Shown here one piece after another: positions 3,650-37,162 of a DNA stretch of 44,266 nucleotides. Position numbers and translations under genes: made by a program. The notes below the pieces were generated by a model. The model had not been told where the DNA came from. It searched no databases and saw only the letters and a program-made list of their open reading frames with translations. This stretch comes from a virus. The DNA lies in the IMG/VR virus record IMGVR_UViG_3300037672_000170, positions 1 to 44,266 of that record. One strand, 5' to 3'. How positions within the stretch are numbered: position 1 is the stretch's first letter; each line of letters opens with the position of its first letter.

Positions 3650-4144
3650 TTAGTATAAGGCATCCATGAGCGGGTTTGATGCCCTTGTAGACGCTTCTAC
3701 CGCTGTCACACGGTCAGAGAACAATGCTATCAACTGTCTGTATTCTTGATCGGTTTGATATTCTAAGCGTTGTTCTGGTTTGAGCGTGTTACCCATAAGC
3801 ACAGTTCCACCACCTAACCGCCGCTTGCATAGATCTACATTATCTCGCATCAAATCTACTCCATATATGTCATTCAGTGCATCTTGCTCAGTCATACCAT
3901 GATGAAGAACTTTGATCCATTTGATAGCAGTTAGGAACTGCCCATCACCACAAGCAGGATCTAGAACTGTCTTGCCTGGTGCAAACTTAGCAACACCACA
4001 TTTCTTGACCATTCTCAACACCAATCGTGTTGGTGTGAATACTTCTGCTGTCGCTTTGATTCTATACTCGTCTCGATCAATCTCTCCCATATATGTGTGA
4101 TCATCCATGCGTTTCTCTATCTCATCCCATAATTGTTCTGACAT
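3650..4144 (-). CDS. N6-adenine DNA methyltransferase, SAM-binding half (split gene)
   Basis: Motif X-like EVFTPTRLVLRMVKKCG (residues 35-50) leads into motif I DPACGDGQF (62-70), the SAM-binding loop. IYGVDLMRDNVDLCKRRL follows as the motif II region. This is the N-terminal half of gamma-class/Eco57I-like N6-adenine methylases, but the catalytic NPPF motif is missing. That motif is supplied by the gene just upstream (4122-5015), which overlaps this one by 23 bases. The two products presumably assemble into one enzyme. The order is permuted relative to standard gamma-class enzymes. Modification target unknown. Confidence 0.8.
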   Translation of the reverse strand: MSEQLWDEIEKRMDDHTYMGEIDRDEYRIKATAEVFTPTRLVLRMVKKCGVAKFAPGKTVLDPACGDGQFLTAIKWIKVLHHGMTEQDALNDIYGVDLMRDNVDLCKRRLGGGTVLMGNTLKPEQRLEYQTDQEYRQLIALFSDRVTAVEASTRASNPLMDALY

Positions 4145-5015
4145 AAGTTATTTCGGACTGGGTAAGATTAAAGAGGTCACAGATATCATCATCAGATAGT
4201 TTACGATTGATTGGTAGATTTGGCAAGTTGCAGAATACTTTCTCGTTACCAAAACCTGACCATTTTGCTGTCTTCAGAATATATCTCATGAGCAATGTGT
4301 TGAGATTATGTGCCAGATTCTCTCCTGCAATCTTATCAGGGACAGTGATATAGTATGCCATATCTGTGCCTCCTAGTTTACCATCATCATAGAATGGTTT
4401 GGTATATCCACTGCGACTCCACATGACTTTACATCTATCTGCCCAATCTTGTCTTACTTGTGAATACCAGGTCTGTGAGTTGGTGTGTAGTATTGGATAA
4501 ATGTGTGCGTCTGTCTGTTCCTTACTGATGGTATCATTACGATGAATCAACACATTGTGGCACGTCACATAATCATATTCCACCTTAAGATGCTCTGTCT
4601 GTGTGAACATAACCTTACGGTGAATAGACAAGGATCGTTCACACAAATCGTTCGGAAGATAAAAGACGGAACTATCAATGACCTGATGAAATATACTGTC
4701 TTCAGTAACAACTTCTGTTTTTTCCATATCGGCGGCGTTGACGATCATATAGTCAGCGAACGTGCTCCCAACACGAGGAAAATAGGTTTTTGTATCTAAG
4801 TGGAGAAATTTGACTGATTTCTGTTGCAGAATCTTGAGAATCTTAGACGACGGAGATAGAAAACTACTAGGAGAGACCTGTAACAGCGTTCCGCCTGGTT
4901 TTAACCAGCGATCAAACGTCTGACGGGTGAAATCTATCCATAATTTGTGTTGAGTCTTCTTTCGATTGGTTGTGTCCTGAAACGGTGGATTGCTTGCGAC
5001 TATATCAAATTGCAT
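4122..5015 (-). CDS. N6-adenine DNA methyltransferase, catalytic and target-recognition half (split gene)
   Basis: Right at the N-terminus lies the catalytic motif IV in FDIVASNPPFQD, followed by LWIDFTRQTFDRWLKPGGTL and an SPSSFLSPSSKI stretch typical of motifs V-VI in N6-adenine methylases. Residues from about 110 on look like a target-recognition domain (SRSGYTKPFYDDGKLGGTDM). Motif I is absent here and is encoded by the next gene. I use the ATG at 5015; an in-frame TTG lies at 5018. The gene overlaps the end of the 5005-6210 gene by 11 bases, indicating a coupled three-gene operon. Confidence 0.8.
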   Translation of the reverse strand: MQFDIVASNPPFQDTTNRKKTQHKLWIDFTRQTFDRWLKPGGTLLQVSPSSFLSPSSKILKILQQKSVKFLHLDTKTYFPRVGSTFADYMIVNAADMEKTEVVTEDSIFHQVIDSSVFYLPNDLCERSLSIHRKVMFTQTEHLKVEYDYVTCHNVLIHRNDTISKEQTDAHIYPILHTNSQTWYSQVRQDWADRCKVMWSRSGYTKPFYDDGKLGGTDMAYYITVPDKIAGENLAHNLNTLLMRYILKTAKWSGFGNEKVFCNLPNLPINRKLSDDDICDLFNLTQSEITYVRTIMG

Positions 5016-6210
5016 CAACTTTGCCTATATCATCAAGGTAAACATATGTATTAGTAGACGTATTCAACTGTTTACACTTGTTAGTTCTACGTTCACCCCA
5101 ACCAAATGCAGTTCCTTTATCTACTGACTTCTTTCCTCCATTATAAGGCAGTTTACCATTTTTGTCCAGCACAAGATCATCTGGAAATCCATTAGGATAA
5201 TCTTCAATATATGCCCAACATCCATTCTTCTGAAGAGTAAAAGGCATATCCATATGCATAATATATCCTTTCTCATCACGCAAAATATATCTCACACTTT
5301 TTTCATGCTTACTAAAATCAACCCAACTTTCCTCAGAATTAGCACGTTTAATTGCATTTGAGTAATCTTTATCAAACAATGAGCAACGATATTTCTTAGG
5401 ACTTAAAAGAAGAAGTTCTTCTGCTCCATCCATTCCAGTTTGTTTAAGAACACGTTTTTTAATCTTGCTTTGAGGAAGTTTCTCTAATGCACATATCATT
5501 TTTCTAACTGCTTCATGCCCATAAACTTCACAATCATTTTTCCATTCATCCTCGTTATCACTCCACCATAGTCCATCACTACTATACACGTACCGATTCT
5601 TAATTGTATCTAAAACATACTCAAAATAATCATATAATTCTGAGATAAGAAAACCATAACCCATCTCCTCAAGAATCTTATTACGTTTTACTTTGTTAGC
5701 ACCCTTAAACTTATATTTTTTATCTTTAGGATATTTTGGATTATAAAACATGCCGCCTGAACCAGTAGACTCAAATAAAATATTGTTAGGGCATGAGATC
5801 CACGTACCAGAGCAAACCTGAATGCTTGAGAATCCCTTCTCATAATTCTTAAGGGAAACAGATATACTCTCCAGTTCTAAAAAATCTATTGTAAAATCAC
5901 CCTTCTTTCCTAGATTTCTATTCTCTACCTCAGAATTAGTAAAATTAAACTTCTCTTTAGGATATTCTTTTCTTAAGTCATTAAAAATGTTATCAATATG
6001 ATTATCTACACTTTTCTTATATTTGCTGGCATTAAAAGTGTCTATGGATAAATTCCTCACCTCACAATAATCAAGGAACTCTTGATACTTTTCTTCCACA
6101 TCATCATTGATTGCACAATCATTAGTTACAGCAAGTTGCTGAAATCTATAAACAACATAGATTTCCGCAGCATCTTGGATGTGATGTTTTTCTTGTGAAC
6201 CTGCGCCCAT
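5005..6210 (-). CDS. putative PD-(D/E)XK restriction endonuclease, 401 aa
   Basis: Around residues 101-121 the sequence GKKGDFTIDF then LELESISVSLK fits a degenerate PD-(D/E)XK nuclease core: D105 followed by S-L-K121, with an early acidic helix (about E15) as a possible third ligand. A following QVCSGTWIS stretch is also seen in some type II endonucleases. Lower confidence comes from the lack of any family match I can prove. Context supports it: it is translationally coupled to a split methyltransferase. The gene is AT-richer and Lys-richer than its neighbours, consistent with recent acquisition. Alternatives are a host-DNA nuclease or an unrelated protein. Confidence 0.5.
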   Translation of the reverse strand: MGAGSQEKHHIQDAAEIYVVYRFQQLAVTNDCAINDDVEEKYQEFLDYCEVRNLSIDTFNASKYKKSVDNHIDNIFNDLRKEYPKEKFNFTNSEVENRNLGKKGDFTIDFLELESISVSLKNYEKGFSSIQVCSGTWISCPNNILFESTGSGGMFYNPKYPKDKKYKFKGANKVKRNKILEEMGYGFLISELYDYFEYVLDTIKNRYVYSSDGLWWSDNEDEWKNDCEVYGHEAVRKMICALEKLPQSKIKKRVLKQTGMDGAEELLLLSPKKYRCSLFDKDYSNAIKRANSEESWVDFSKHEKSVRYILRDEKGYIMHMDMPFTLQKNGCWAYIEDYPNGFPDDLVLDKNGKLPYNGGKKSVDKGTAFGWGERRTNKCKQLNTSTNTYVYLDDIGKVDAI

Positions 6211-7886: not shown

Positions 7887-8972
7887 TCATTCGTTTACAT
7901 CATCTTCACAATCTCCATCAAGTTTGGTGTAGAGTTGGAGGAAAGATGACTTTGTTTCCTCATCAAAACGATTGAGACACATTTCGACTGCTAGTTGCTT
8001 CTTACCAAAAATAGCATATGCTTTGATGATATGAACAAGACGGCGAGTTGAGATGATCTCATCGATACCTCCATCACGGAATGTCTTGCGAACAATATCT
8101 GCCCAGTCTACAAGATAGACCAAGAACTTCTCAACGTCACCAACAACAGGGATGCTTAGTTCATTACACATAGCACGGAGAATCTTGTTCTCAGTAGCAG
8201 GTGTTGGATATTCTTGCTCGAAGGTGATTGGGAAACGCTCAAGAAATGCCTCGTTAAGTACATTCGTGCCGATGAATCGCCCATCATCAGAACCCTTGCC
8301 CTTGGTATTAGCAGTGGCAATGATAGTGAAACCAGCAGTGGGTTTGATATACTCACCAATCTTCTTCAGGAAGATACCCTTACCCTCCATGATAGATTGG
8401 AGACACAAAATCTTGTTGGATGCCAGATCTACCTCGTCAAGCAGTAACACAGCACCACGCTGTAGTGCCTCAATCACTGGACCATTGTGCCATACTGTCT
8501 CACCATTAACGAGACGAAATCCACCAATTAGATCATCTTCGTCTGTCTCTACAGTGATATTGACACGAATCAATTCTCGGTTGAGTTGTGAACATGCTTG
8601 CTCAACACCGAATGTTTTACCGTTACCAGACATACCTGTAATAAAGACAGGATAGAATGAACGGGATGCAATAACTTTTTTAAGATTGCTGAAGTTACCA
8701 AACTGGACGAAAGTATCATCTTTTTCAGGGATAAGATTCTGAACAAGTCCCTCAGTCTTGTTCACTGATTGCTCTAATTCTTGCTTGACTTCCTCAACAG
8801 TCAAATTCCAATGACCACGAGATACTTTGTACTCATTGAGATACTTAGTGATGGTCTGGTAAGATACACTTGAAGTGTTGCAGTATGCCTTGACCATGTT
8901 AGCATCCAGTTCCGTGCCAAAGGTGTTAACCAAGGCGTCGATGTGTTGTGTGCTGTTCACGGTGCGAGGCAT
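7887..8972 (-). CDS. cobS: CobS/MoxR-like AAA+ ATPase
   Basis: Walker A GMSGNGKT (113-120), Walker B VLLLDEVD (175-182), a sensor-1 type TIIATANT (216-223) and an arginine-finger ERF (245-247) define an AAA+ ATPase of the CobS/MoxR group. The N-terminal 90 residues are helical and family-specific. Cyanophages carry this gene under the name cobS, but here it pairs with a VWA metallopeptidase-like gene, so the cobaltochelatase role is unproven. MoxR-type ATPases usually remodel partner complexes through a VWA protein. AGGAAAGGAAC precedes the ATG and a TATAAT lies 24 bases upstream. Confidence 0.85.
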   Translation of the reverse strand: MPRTVNSTQHIDALVNTFGTELDANMVKAYCNTSSVSYQTITKYLNEYKVSRGHWNLTVEEVKQELEQSVNKTEGLVQNLIPEKDDTFVQFGNFSNLKKVIASRSFYPVFITGMSGNGKTFGVEQACSQLNRELIRVNITVETDEDDLIGGFRLVNGETVWHNGPVIEALQRGAVLLLDEVDLASNKILCLQSIMEGKGIFLKKIGEYIKPTAGFTIIATANTKGKGSDDGRFIGTNVLNEAFLERFPITFEQEYPTPATENKILRAMCNELSIPVVGDVEKFLVYLVDWADIVRKTFRDGGIDEIISTRRLVHIIKAYAIFGKKQLAVEMCLNRFDEETKSSFLQLYTKLDGDCEDDVNE

Positions 8973-8995
8973 GTTCCTTTCCTGTCGATAAGACT

Positions 8996-9001
8996 ATTAT
9001 A
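8996..9001 (-). promoter_or_regulatory. TATAAT -10 element of the AAA+ gene
   Basis: CCATTATAATAG on the minus strand in the short gap before the cobS-like gene. No convincing -35 is seen. Confidence 0.45.
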
Positions 9002-9037
9002 ATGGATAGATGGGGTTCAGATCTATAGCGTGTGCCA

Positions 9038-11158
<2,121 letters not shown>

Positions 11159-11532: not shown

Positions 11533-12231
11533 ATGAAAGTCACTTGTGTTATTCCTGCCAGAATGTCATCCGGCAGATTTCCTGGCAAACCATTAGCAAG
11601 AATTGCTGGACGTGAGATGGTATTACGAGTGGCAGACATTGCCGCTCAATCTAAACTCATTGATCACATCATTGTTGCTACTGAGGATGAAATTATTAAA
11701 CGACTATGTGAGATAAATGGATATGAATCACGACTCACAGGCAGACATTATACCTGCACTCATCGCGTGGCAGAGGTATCTGAAACTTTGGAAAGTGATT
11801 ATATTATTAATCTACAAGGAGACGAACCACTAACAGACCCTCAATGGTTAGACGATATAATTGCCTTTGGTATTAAAAATGACTGCGACATGGTACAAGC
11901 AGCACGAAATTTAGAACCGGAAGAGATTGAAGATGAAGATGTAGTGAAGATGGTTGTCAACAACGGTGTAGTGACTCACATGATGAGAACACCTGAGATT
12001 ATCACTAACAATATCATTACCCAACTGGGTATTTACATGTATAGAAGAAATGTTATCTGTGATTTTCCTAATCTTGACATGACATTTGTCAAGCATTGGG
12101 GTGGTTTAGATACTATTGGGTTCTGCGGTAAATATAAAGTTACCCCATTTGACTTAAAATGTGGTAAAATAAGAGCAGTTGATCGCCCCTGGCACATTCA
12201 AGAAATCGAGCATGAACTTGCGAAATCCTGA
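11533..12231 (+). CDS. kdsB: KdsB-like CMP-sugar (KDO) cytidylyltransferase
   Basis: CVIPARMSSGRFPGKPLARI is the CTP-binding start of KdsB. HIIVATEDEIIKRLC, HRVAEV and the NLQGDEPLTDP loop follow in family order. KdsB makes CMP-KDO from CTP and KDO for lipopolysaccharide. At 232 residues it is slightly short of the usual 245-250. The conserved SGTDR region reads TCTHR here, so the substrate may be another acidic sugar. The gene starts the plus-strand sugar cassette and overlaps the SIS gene by 20 bases. Neighbours are all on the opposite strand, suggesting an inserted module. Confidence 0.8.
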   Translation: MKVTCVIPARMSSGRFPGKPLARIAGREMVLRVADIAAQSKLIDHIIVATEDEIIKRLCEINGYESRLTGRHYTCTHRVAEVSETLESDYIINLQGDEPLTDPQWLDDIIAFGIKNDCDMVQAARNLEPEEIEDEDVVKMVVNNGVVTHMMRTPEIITNNIITQLGIYMYRRNVICDFPNLDMTFVKHWGGLDTIGFCGKYKVTPFDLKCGKIRAVDRPWHIQEIEHELAKS

Positions 12232-35357: not shown

Positions 35358-37162
35358 TAAGCTGTTGTTTGGGAGAGAGCATCTATAATGTATCTAGCAA
35401 CTTTAGCGTCACTTGGACCAGATATAACTCTGACCCCACCACCAGAACCACCACCACCCATCATTGGTTGTTGGTTTTGTCCTTCCTCAACAGGAAGAAT
35501 CATAGAAACTTTTTCTCCACCACCCAATTTCATATTCATAAGTTGTTCCTGCTCACGATGAATTTGTTCGTTAATCCTATCTTGTAGACTAGGTTTCTTA
35601 GAAGGATTCAGTTGTTGTAGAGCCTGCTGTGGAATACCTTCTGGATATTCTCTCTCCAGTCTCTTCATCAACGATTCCTGTTCAGTCATAGGATTACCCT
35701 GACTGGTTTCTTTTTTAACAGGAGTTGTAGATTTAGAACCAAACTTCTTAGTTGCCTTAACAATGCCTGGTGCTGCTGGGGTTGCTGGGGTTGCTGATTG
35801 ATTTTTAAAAATCATCTCCAGCAGAGTTCTCTGCTGCTGTTCGAGTGAAACACCAGGAGTAGGAGGTTCTTTTGGAGTTGAAATTTTTACTGGTTGTTTT
35901 GGTGCCTTTGGTATAGCGGGTTTTCTCTGACCAAAGGCACCTTTCATACCCAAAACGGATAGGAATGGTGCGATAGTAGCAGGAAGGTTAAAGATACCAC
36001 CTGCCAACTCCATCTGAGACACCGCTCTTTCATTTGATTCTGGCGTCAACTTAGGATTAAACGAGATTCTAGGGGACATATCAGGTCCACCTATCAATCG
36101 ATTAGGAGCAGTAGCACCAACCTTTAGGAATCCAAAATCTGTCATCCTGGATGCTGTCTTTCCAGTCTCTAGATATTCTTTCTGTAGTTCTATCAGAATA
36201 CCATAAAGTTCTTTTGGAATTACTTTGCCAGTGAAACTTGCAACACCATCTAATGCCGCCGCCGTCTCTTCAGGAGTATCTCCTGGTGGTTTACCAGGTT
36301 CTGGTTTTGGACCTTGCTCCCCGAAGAATCCACCATAATCTGTGCCTTTTGGTTCTACTGCTTCTACAGGTTCTGATTCAACATAACATAATGTGTTTAG
36401 TTTTTCTAACTTACCAAGTGCTCTCTCAAAACTATCCAACCCAGTTCCGAATGGCGTCTTCGCCAACATCATCCCAGATCTTTTAGTTTCTTCTATTCTT
36501 CTGGCATCAGCACCAGTAATACTATCAGCAACTCCCGATGCCAGACTACCACCTAGGAGACTGCCTAGGACTCCTCCTATGGCAGCACCAGGGATAGCAC
36601 CAACACCACCGAACATAGCGCCTATAGCGCCTCCTGCCACCGCTCCTGCCTTCATACCACCTAGACCACCTAGCAGTCCTGCTCCCGCTCCTGCGCCCGC
36701 CTGGAGGTTAGTCTGACCAGATCCCTTACGCATGGCAAAATCAACGCCAGCAAACGCAACGTTAAGAGGACCACCAATCCCAGACACTCTACCTTTAGGA
36801 AGGACACCTGGACGACGTAGACCACCTGTAGGGACTCTAACAGATCTAGGTTTACCACCAGGTACCATGGGTTTGGCACCACGCATCCTGCCAAGGGCAC
36901 CACCACCTACCAATGCAGATAGTCCAAGACCACCCAACAATGCGTTAGTTTTATTACCAGAGTCTTGTTCTTTCTGCTTTACAGCATCTATAGCAGATCG
37001 AAATGTTTTTAGTCGTTCTTGTTGATTCTTCTTCCTTTGCTCAAGGATTTTTCTTTGATCACGGTTATTGACAACAGAATTCCTGCCGAAACTATTGGTT
37101 AGTGCCAGAGAAGTTCTTTTTAGTTTTAGTGCTGAACCTAAAAGTTTGTCAATAGGTTTCAT
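35357..37162 (-). CDS. Gly/Ala-rich hub-region structural protein, 601 aa
   Basis: A basic N-terminus with coiled coil (about 30-68) is followed by a Gly/Ala glycine-zipper-like region (153-215, GGVLGSLLGGSLASG). A Pro-rich, poorly ordered C-terminal half comes next. The length equals T4 gp29 (590), the tape measure, and the place beside gp27 and gp26 fits. No residue similarity can be shown, so tape measure is a guess from size, position and the membrane-seeking segment. It is one base away from the lysozyme gene. Confidence 0.6.
   Translation of the reverse strand: MKPIDKLLGSALKLKRTSLALTNSFGRNSVVNNRDQRKILEQRKKNQQERLKTFRSAIDAVKQKEQDSGNKTNALLGGLGLSALVGGGALGRMRGAKPMVPGGKPRSVRVPTGGLRRPGVLPKGRVSGIGGPLNVAFAGVDFAMRKGSGQTNLQAGAGAGAGLLGGLGGMKAGAVAGGAIGAMFGGVGAIPGAAIGGVLGSLLGGSLASGVADSITGADARRIEETKRSGMMLAKTPFGTGLDSFERALGKLEKLNTLCYVESEPVEAVEPKGTDYGGFFGEQGPKPEPGKPPGDTPEETAAALDGVASFTGKVIPKELYGILIELQKEYLETGKTASRMTDFGFLKVGATAPNRLIGGPDMSPRISFNPKLTPESNERAVSQMELAGGIFNLPATIAPFLSVLGMKGAFGQRKPAIPKAPKQPVKISTPKEPPTPGVSLEQQQRTLLEMIFKNQSATPATPAAPGIVKATKKFGSKSTTPVKKETSQGNPMTEQESLMKRLEREYPEGIPQQALQQLNPSKKPSLQDRINEQIHREQEQLMNMKLGGGEKVSMILPVEEGQNQQPMMGGGGSGGGVRVISGPSDAKVARYIIDALSQTTA

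What the first reader, a model, noticed from the sequence alone, without database searches (positions are those of the whole stretch)
3650..6210. Possible phage restriction-modification cassette with a split, order-swapped N6-adenine methyltransferase
The methyltransferase is split: the NPPF catalytic motif is at the start of one gene, and the SAM-binding DPACGDGQF is in the next gene, which overlaps it by 23 bases. In gamma-class enzymes the SAM motif comes first, so the order is swapped, as if circularly permuted and cut. A coupled upstream gene has a GDF...SLK core like a PD-(D/E)XK endonuclease. Phages usually carry orphan methylases, so a nuclease with a methylase would be unusual, perhaps used against rivals or host DNA.
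Basis: partly seen in the sequence, partly recalled or inferred. Interest (0 to 1): 0.8.

Follow-up and report, generated by a model that had tools for sequence, protein, structure and literature searches.

The report
Phage cassette: split methylase plus nuclease
A marine T4-like phage carries three overlapping genes, a likely DNA-cutting enzyme followed by a DNA-methylating enzyme split into two chains in the reverse of the usual order, and dozens of related phages and a few bacteria keep the same trio, so it is probably a real, untested restriction-modification cassette.

Summary
On the minus strand, gene A (401 aa, 6210-5005), gene B (298 aa with NPPF, 5018-4122) and gene C (164 aa with DPACGDGQF, 4144-3650) overlap in that order. 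Profiles place C on the N-terminal part, and B on the later part, of canonical adenine methyltransferases, so the order is swapped. It is not an assembly artefact: 46 of 48 viral contigs with a B homologue also carry A (the other two are cut), and nine relatives have B and C fused in the same swapped order, never the normal one. Bacteria (Curtobacterium, a Limnochordia MAG) carry the trio, and all three genes are under purifying selection. A fused relative folds like CamA, M.TaqI and M.BseCI. The predicted fold of A has a PD-(D/E)XK-like core with invariant E16, D105, K121 and Q131; no library family matches, and HinP1I is only a weak structural hit. Best reading: a Type II-like R-M cassette with a two-chain, circularly permuted gamma-type methyltransferase and an unclassified nuclease. 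Cleavage, methylation and a shared site are inferred, not shown. Near-identical methyltransferases are paired with very different A proteins, and a cyanophage clade keeps A alone. New variant of a known kind.

The parts
5005..6210 (-). Gene A, 401 aa: predicted PD-(D/E)XK-like nuclease (E16, D105, S119-x-K121, Q131), first gene of the cassette
   Evidence: no match in Pfam, PADLOC, NCBIfam or PHROGs
4122..5018 (-). Gene B, 298 aa (297 from ATG 5015): catalytic half (motif IV NPPF) plus a region presumed to be the target-recognition domain of an N6-adenine methyltransferase
   Evidence: NPP[FYW] in 44 of 44 homologues
3650..4144 (-). Gene C, 164 aa: SAM-binding half (motif X-like AEVFTP, motif I DPACGDGQF, YGVDLMRDNV) of the same methyltransferase; overlaps gene B by 23 nt
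4122..4144 (-). 23-nt overlap of genes B and C, at the position that is a low-confidence linker in fused relatives
   Evidence: linker 305-312 of the fused L044 model has pLDDT below 50

Best explanation
A three-gene restriction-modification-like cassette of a T4-like marine phage. B (catalytic plus target-recognition half) and C (SAM-binding half) assemble into one N6-adenine DNA methyltransferase. It descends from a gamma-type (TaqI/BseCI/CamA-like) enzyme by circular permutation to CAT-TRD-AdoMet order, with a break at the linker. It marks phage DNA at specific sites. A is a Mg-dependent PD-(D/E)XK nuclease that cuts unmarked DNA (host chromosome, competing phage or plasmid). Shown here: order, conservation, purifying selection, homology of both MTase halves. 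Predicted here: folds of A and of a fused MTase relative. Inferred: heterodimer formation, methylation, cleavage, shared site, and biological use.
For: MTase identity. Permutation: the C-terminus of the fused relatives (profile 349-439) aligns to residues 6-93 of M.BseCI; canonical models match the halves in complementary parts. Split is real and old: 35 of 44 distinct B homologues are split, with 2 changes on the tree, including three bacterial loci from different phyla. Linkage: 46 of 46 uncut B loci have A beside them, in three layouts (A-B-C, fused BC-A, convergent in Curtobacterium). Nuclease: fold and invariant residues, with HinP1I top of the PDB list (weak). Selection: dN/dS about 0.06-0.17 for A, B and C.
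Against: A has no significant sequence match and only a weak structural match to any known restriction enzyme, and its active site reads SxK rather than D/ExK. Cyanophages P-RSM6 and S-SZBM1 and related contigs have A with no such MTase in the whole genome or long contig. No A-specific avoided site was found in them. MTase halves that are 92-99% identical are paired with A proteins only 43-44% identical, which is odd if both must read the same site.
Confidence: 0.62

Rival explanations
1. Two linked but functionally separate tools: an orphan-type split methyltransferase that protects phage DNA from host restriction, and a nuclease A that degrades host DNA or trims phage DNA with its own specificity not matched to the MTase.
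For: A alone in a cyanophage clade; the split MTase without A nearby in S-CAM7, Bellamy, ACG-2014f and a Curtobacterium plasmid; A is swapped freely next to near-constant MTases.
Against: Adjacency in every uncut B locus and in three layouts, plus bacterial copies, argues for a joint function. The lone-A clade is sister to A+D+MTase loci and nested among A+MTase loci, so partner loss is a plausible origin (SH-aLRT 87).
Confidence: 0.23
2. A is a methylation-dependent (Type IV-like) or nicking nuclease that acts on DNA marked by B+C or by others, for example for host takeover or DNA processing.
For: A PD-(D/E)XK-like core is compatible with many nuclease roles; some loci have an extra gene D between A and B.
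Against: Nothing specific supports methyl-dependence; a phage that marks its own DNA and cuts marked DNA would harm itself.
Confidence: 0.08
3. The split and swapped order is an assembly or frameshift artefact, or a decaying enzyme.
For: One locus (L053) has a broken B.
Against: The same order in dozens of contigs, three bacterial genomes, a plasmid and cultured phages; dN/dS about 0.06-0.17; catalytic motif intact in 44 of 44.
Confidence: 0.01

Closest known systems
Gamma-class N6-adenine methyltransferases (M.TaqI, M.BseCI, CamA; Pfam N6_Mtase/Eco57I)
   Same: Fold of a fused relative, motif IV NPPF, motif I DPACGxG, motif-X-like EVFTP; C-part aligns to residues 6-93 of M.BseCI
   Different: Order CAT-TRD-AdoMet instead of AdoMet-CAT-TRD, and two chains
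Beta-class amino-MTases
   Same: Linear order CAT-TRD-AdoMet (class order recalled; classes reviewed in PMC3874165, permutation in PMC1282579)
   Different: Sequence motifs are gamma-type (NPPF, DPACGxG) and library hits are to gamma-type families
Naturally permuted or bisected C5-MTases (M.BssHII, M.Alw26I group; bisected enzymes cited in PMC5944983)
   Same: Nature permutes and splits DNA MTases near the TRD boundary and fragments complement (PMC5944983)
   Different: Those are cytosine-C5 enzymes; here an adenine-type enzyme is both permuted and split
Virus-encoded R-M systems of chloroviruses and marseilleviruses (PMC7253447)
   Same: Virus carries nuclease plus MTase; used there against host DNA or rival viruses
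   Different: Eukaryotic viruses, different enzymes, functions tested there and not here
T4-like phage pairs PKO111 gp114/gp115 and PSD9_103/102; fused ZPAH1 QQG33829
   Same: Overlapping split halves in the same swapped order (Tevens) or one swapped fusion (ZPAH1)
   Different: The Teven catalytic half is fused to a LEM-3-like GIY-YIG domain (PF22945, E 3e-15) instead of having gene A

Membership tests
Type II restriction-modification system | Nuclease gene next to a DNA methyltransferase gene as a heritable unit | tested here: met
   46 of 46 uncut B loci carry A; also in bacteria. That A is a nuclease is itself a prediction.
Type II restriction-modification system | Nuclease cuts the site that the methyltransferase protects | not testable with these tools
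   Needs enzymes or methylation calls; the indirect site-avoidance test was uninformative
Type II restriction-modification system | Every genome with the nuclease also has its modification partner | tested here: inconclusive
   Met for the window's own cassette; P-RSM6 and S-SZBM1 have A and no homologue of this MTase, but another kind of protection there was not excluded
Gamma-class amino-MTase | Motifs NPP[FYW] and DPxCGxG with AdoMet-MTase fold | tested here: met
Gamma-class amino-MTase | Order AdoMet - catalytic - TRD, AdoMet and catalytic parts in one chain | tested here: not met
   Catalytic half in B, AdoMet half in C; fused relatives keep the swapped order
Beta-class amino-MTase | Order catalytic - TRD - AdoMet | tested here: met
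Beta-class amino-MTase | Beta-type sequence motifs and family match | tested here: inconclusive
   Significant family hits are to gamma-type or general adenine MTase models; no dedicated beta model test was run
PD-(D/E)XK nuclease | Core beta hairpin with D and K, followed by further strand and helix | tested here: met
   Model pLDDT 88.8: strands 88-92, 106-110, 116-122, 130-135, helix 139-145 with D105, K121, Q131; a prediction, and geometry was not measured
PD-(D/E)XK nuclease | Acidic residue two before the lysine | tested here: not met
   S119 is conserved at that place; some restriction enzymes depart here too (recalled, not tested)
PD-(D/E)XK nuclease | Significant sequence or fold match to a known member | tested here: not met
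   best PDB hit HinP1I at E 0.25

The most novel reading that the evidence does not exclude
A family of mobile R-M systems, shared by lytic T4-like phages and bacteria, whose methyltransferase is a heterodimer made by circular permutation and fission of a gamma-type adenine enzyme, and in which a new nuclease family is exchanged like a cartridge around a conserved methyltransferase and serves as the phage's own weapon against host or rival DNA.
Probability: 0.35. Interest if true: 0.75.

Novelty: new variant of a known kind. Interest (0 to 1): 0.6.

Why it matters
Phage methyltransferases are usually read as passive shields. A conserved nuclease-methyltransferase cassette in marine T4-like phages would mean that such phages carry an active restriction weapon, as some giant viruses do (PMC7253447). 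The two-chain permuted enzyme gives a directly testable natural case of permutation plus fission in adenine methyltransferases, and gene A would be a new restriction-enzyme family. In the cultured relatives seen here these genes are annotated as hypothetical or plain methylase.

Tried and rejected
Library searches of A (Pfam, PHROGs, PADLOC, NCBIfam, PDB sequences) gave nothing. Site avoidance: CCGG is absent from six lone-A cyanophage genomes or contigs (0 against about 407 expected), which first looked like the site of A; seven of nine control cyanomyoviruses without A also lack it and it holds no adenine, so it was dropped. GACGTC, GTCGAC, GACN3GTC and CCAN5TGG are depleted in controls too. 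The search for related loci with A as a single sequence found nothing; the alignment did. A search of 396 genomes of the Curtobacterium phylum found A only in the starting genome, so it is rare in bacteria. S-MbCM6_046/047 was checked as a further split pair and rejected: 047 is not a SAM half. Assembly artefact rejected. Structure prediction of B and C as two chains was not possible; a fused relative was folded instead.

Full report
Observation. The window is a 44,266-base virus record of IMG/VR type with T4-like tail genes (baseplate hub and lysozyme, baseplate tail-tube cap, tail fibres) and a porphyrin-biosynthesis type auxiliary gene, so it belongs to a T4-like myovirus.

The methyltransferase. 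C matches N6_Mtase at the front of the profile and B matches Eco57I at its back. B alone matches a Type II MTase model of 432 positions from 130 on. In fused relatives, profile positions 349-439 align to residues 6-93 of M.BseCI. So the swap is a circular permutation relative to gamma-type enzymes, giving CAT-TRD-AdoMet, which is also the beta-class order. Permutation of DNA methyltransferases as such is known (PMC1282579, PMC5944983; classes in PMC3874165). The AlphaFold2 model of the fused L044 protein (pLDDT 85, pTM 0.83) hits CamA, BrxX, M.TaqI and M.BseCI (E down to 2e-10, sequential alignments with modest TM around 0.3-0.4, as expected for a permuted chain). The low-confidence stretch 305-312 lies where the split genes are cut.

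Relatives. One viral scan with B found 48 loci. A is beside B in 46 and the other two are cut by the contig end. Most are A-B-C; nine distinct loci have B and C fused in the same order, and three of these have A downstream. In no locus does C precede B. In about ten distinct loci an extra gene D of about 375 aa sits between A and B. Bacteria: a Limnochordia MAG (A-B-C), Curtobacterium ammoniigenes (B-C with A convergent), a proteobacterial MAG (B-C, no A). On the B tree (44 rows, quick search, many weak forks) split against fused needs two changes. NPP[FYW] is intact in 44 of 44 and dN/dS is about 0.06-0.17 for A, B and C.

More distant, the same permuted design occurs without A nearby: split in S-CAM7 and in a Curtobacterium plasmid, with an extra gene between the halves in Bellamy; halves about 100 kb apart in ACG-2014f; one fused chain in Aeromonas phage ZPAH1; and split with a GIY-YIG domain on the catalytic half in Klebsiella phage PKO111.

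The nuclease. A has no library match. Its model is confident (pLDDT 88.8, pTM 0.84), with the strand-strand-strand-helix arrangement of a PD-(D/E)XK core and invariant E16, K103, D105, K121, Q131 and SGT 134-136 (S119 conserved in place of the acid). The PDB search gives HinP1I first but weakly (E 0.25, prob 0.20); viral predictions give only uncharacterised phage proteins. I call it a probable nuclease, not a member of a known restriction-enzyme family.

Is it R-M? For: linkage in several layouts, spread to bacteria, joint purifying selection. Against: a cyanophage clade, including P-RSM6 and S-SZBM1, has A and no such MTase; on the A tree it is sister to loci with A+D+MTase (support 87) and lies among A+MTase loci, so loss of the partner is a plausible but unproven origin. 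Further, A is exchanged around nearly constant MTases: L016/L032 A 44%, B 92%, C 99%; L022/L019 A 43%, B 96%, C 97%; L028/L038 A 34%, B 92%, C 79%. Either diverged A proteins keep one site, or the specificities are not tied. I could not decide by site avoidance.

Mechanism, with steps marked. B and C encode the two halves of one enzyme (homology: shown; assembly: inferred). It methylates adenine (inferred from NPPF and family). A cuts DNA (inferred from predicted fold and residues). Methylation protects from A (inferred from linkage). Use against host or rival DNA (inferred by analogy with chloroviruses and marseilleviruses, PMC7253447).

Verdict. A real, conserved arrangement that the libraries and open papers searched here do not describe; REBASE and subscription literature could not be searched. 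New variant of a known kind, interest 0.6.

Noticed in passing
L127-L164 (lone-A cyanophage genomes and contigs) and controls L176-L183: CCGG is entirely absent from most T4-like cyanophages tested, with or without gene A (0 of about 630 expected over 13 genomes, contigs or partial genomes), but present in ACG-2014f (149 of 192 expected), partly in Sf-FS3 (8 of 53) and at the expected level in the window (52 of 50). Cause unknown.
   Followed up: partly
L014:4884-6011, L032:4790-5917 and similar loci: An extra gene of about 375 aa sits between A and B in part of the loci; the members scanned have no significant Pfam or PHROGs match. By eye it resembles ParB-like N-termini (unverified).
   Followed up: partly
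L003:2524-4459 (Klebsiella phage PKO111 gp114/gp115); L007:2506-4471: Teven phages carry a LEM-3-like GIY-YIG domain fused to the NPPF half, overlapping a separate SAM half: a second kind of nuclease plus split swapped methyltransferase.
   Followed up: partly
L166 and L171 (ACG-2014f, record positions 35890-36264 and 135350-136216): The two halves of a permuted methyltransferase lie about 100 kb apart in one phage genome.
   Followed up: no
L182:35954-36373 (S-MbCM6_047): Annotated as methyltransferase, but its sequence (DFMVASTGAKIQVKRHTK) looks by eye like a small PD-(D/E)XK nuclease, overlapping a methyltransferase gene: possibly another cyanophage R-M pair.
   Followed up: no
L185:4001-5357 (Curtobacterium plasmid D40): Split permuted methyltransferase on a plasmid, with no gene A in the 8.9-kb stretch searched.
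   Followed up: partly
window 11533-12231 (+) and 7887-11158 (-): A gene that reads like CMP-KDO synthetase (by eye) and a CobS/CobT-like AAA plus VWA pair (the AAA gene matches PHROG 249 porphyrin biosynthesis).
   Followed up: partly
L053:1803-2722: Gene B is broken into two ORFs in this contig; decay or sequencing error.
   Followed up: no
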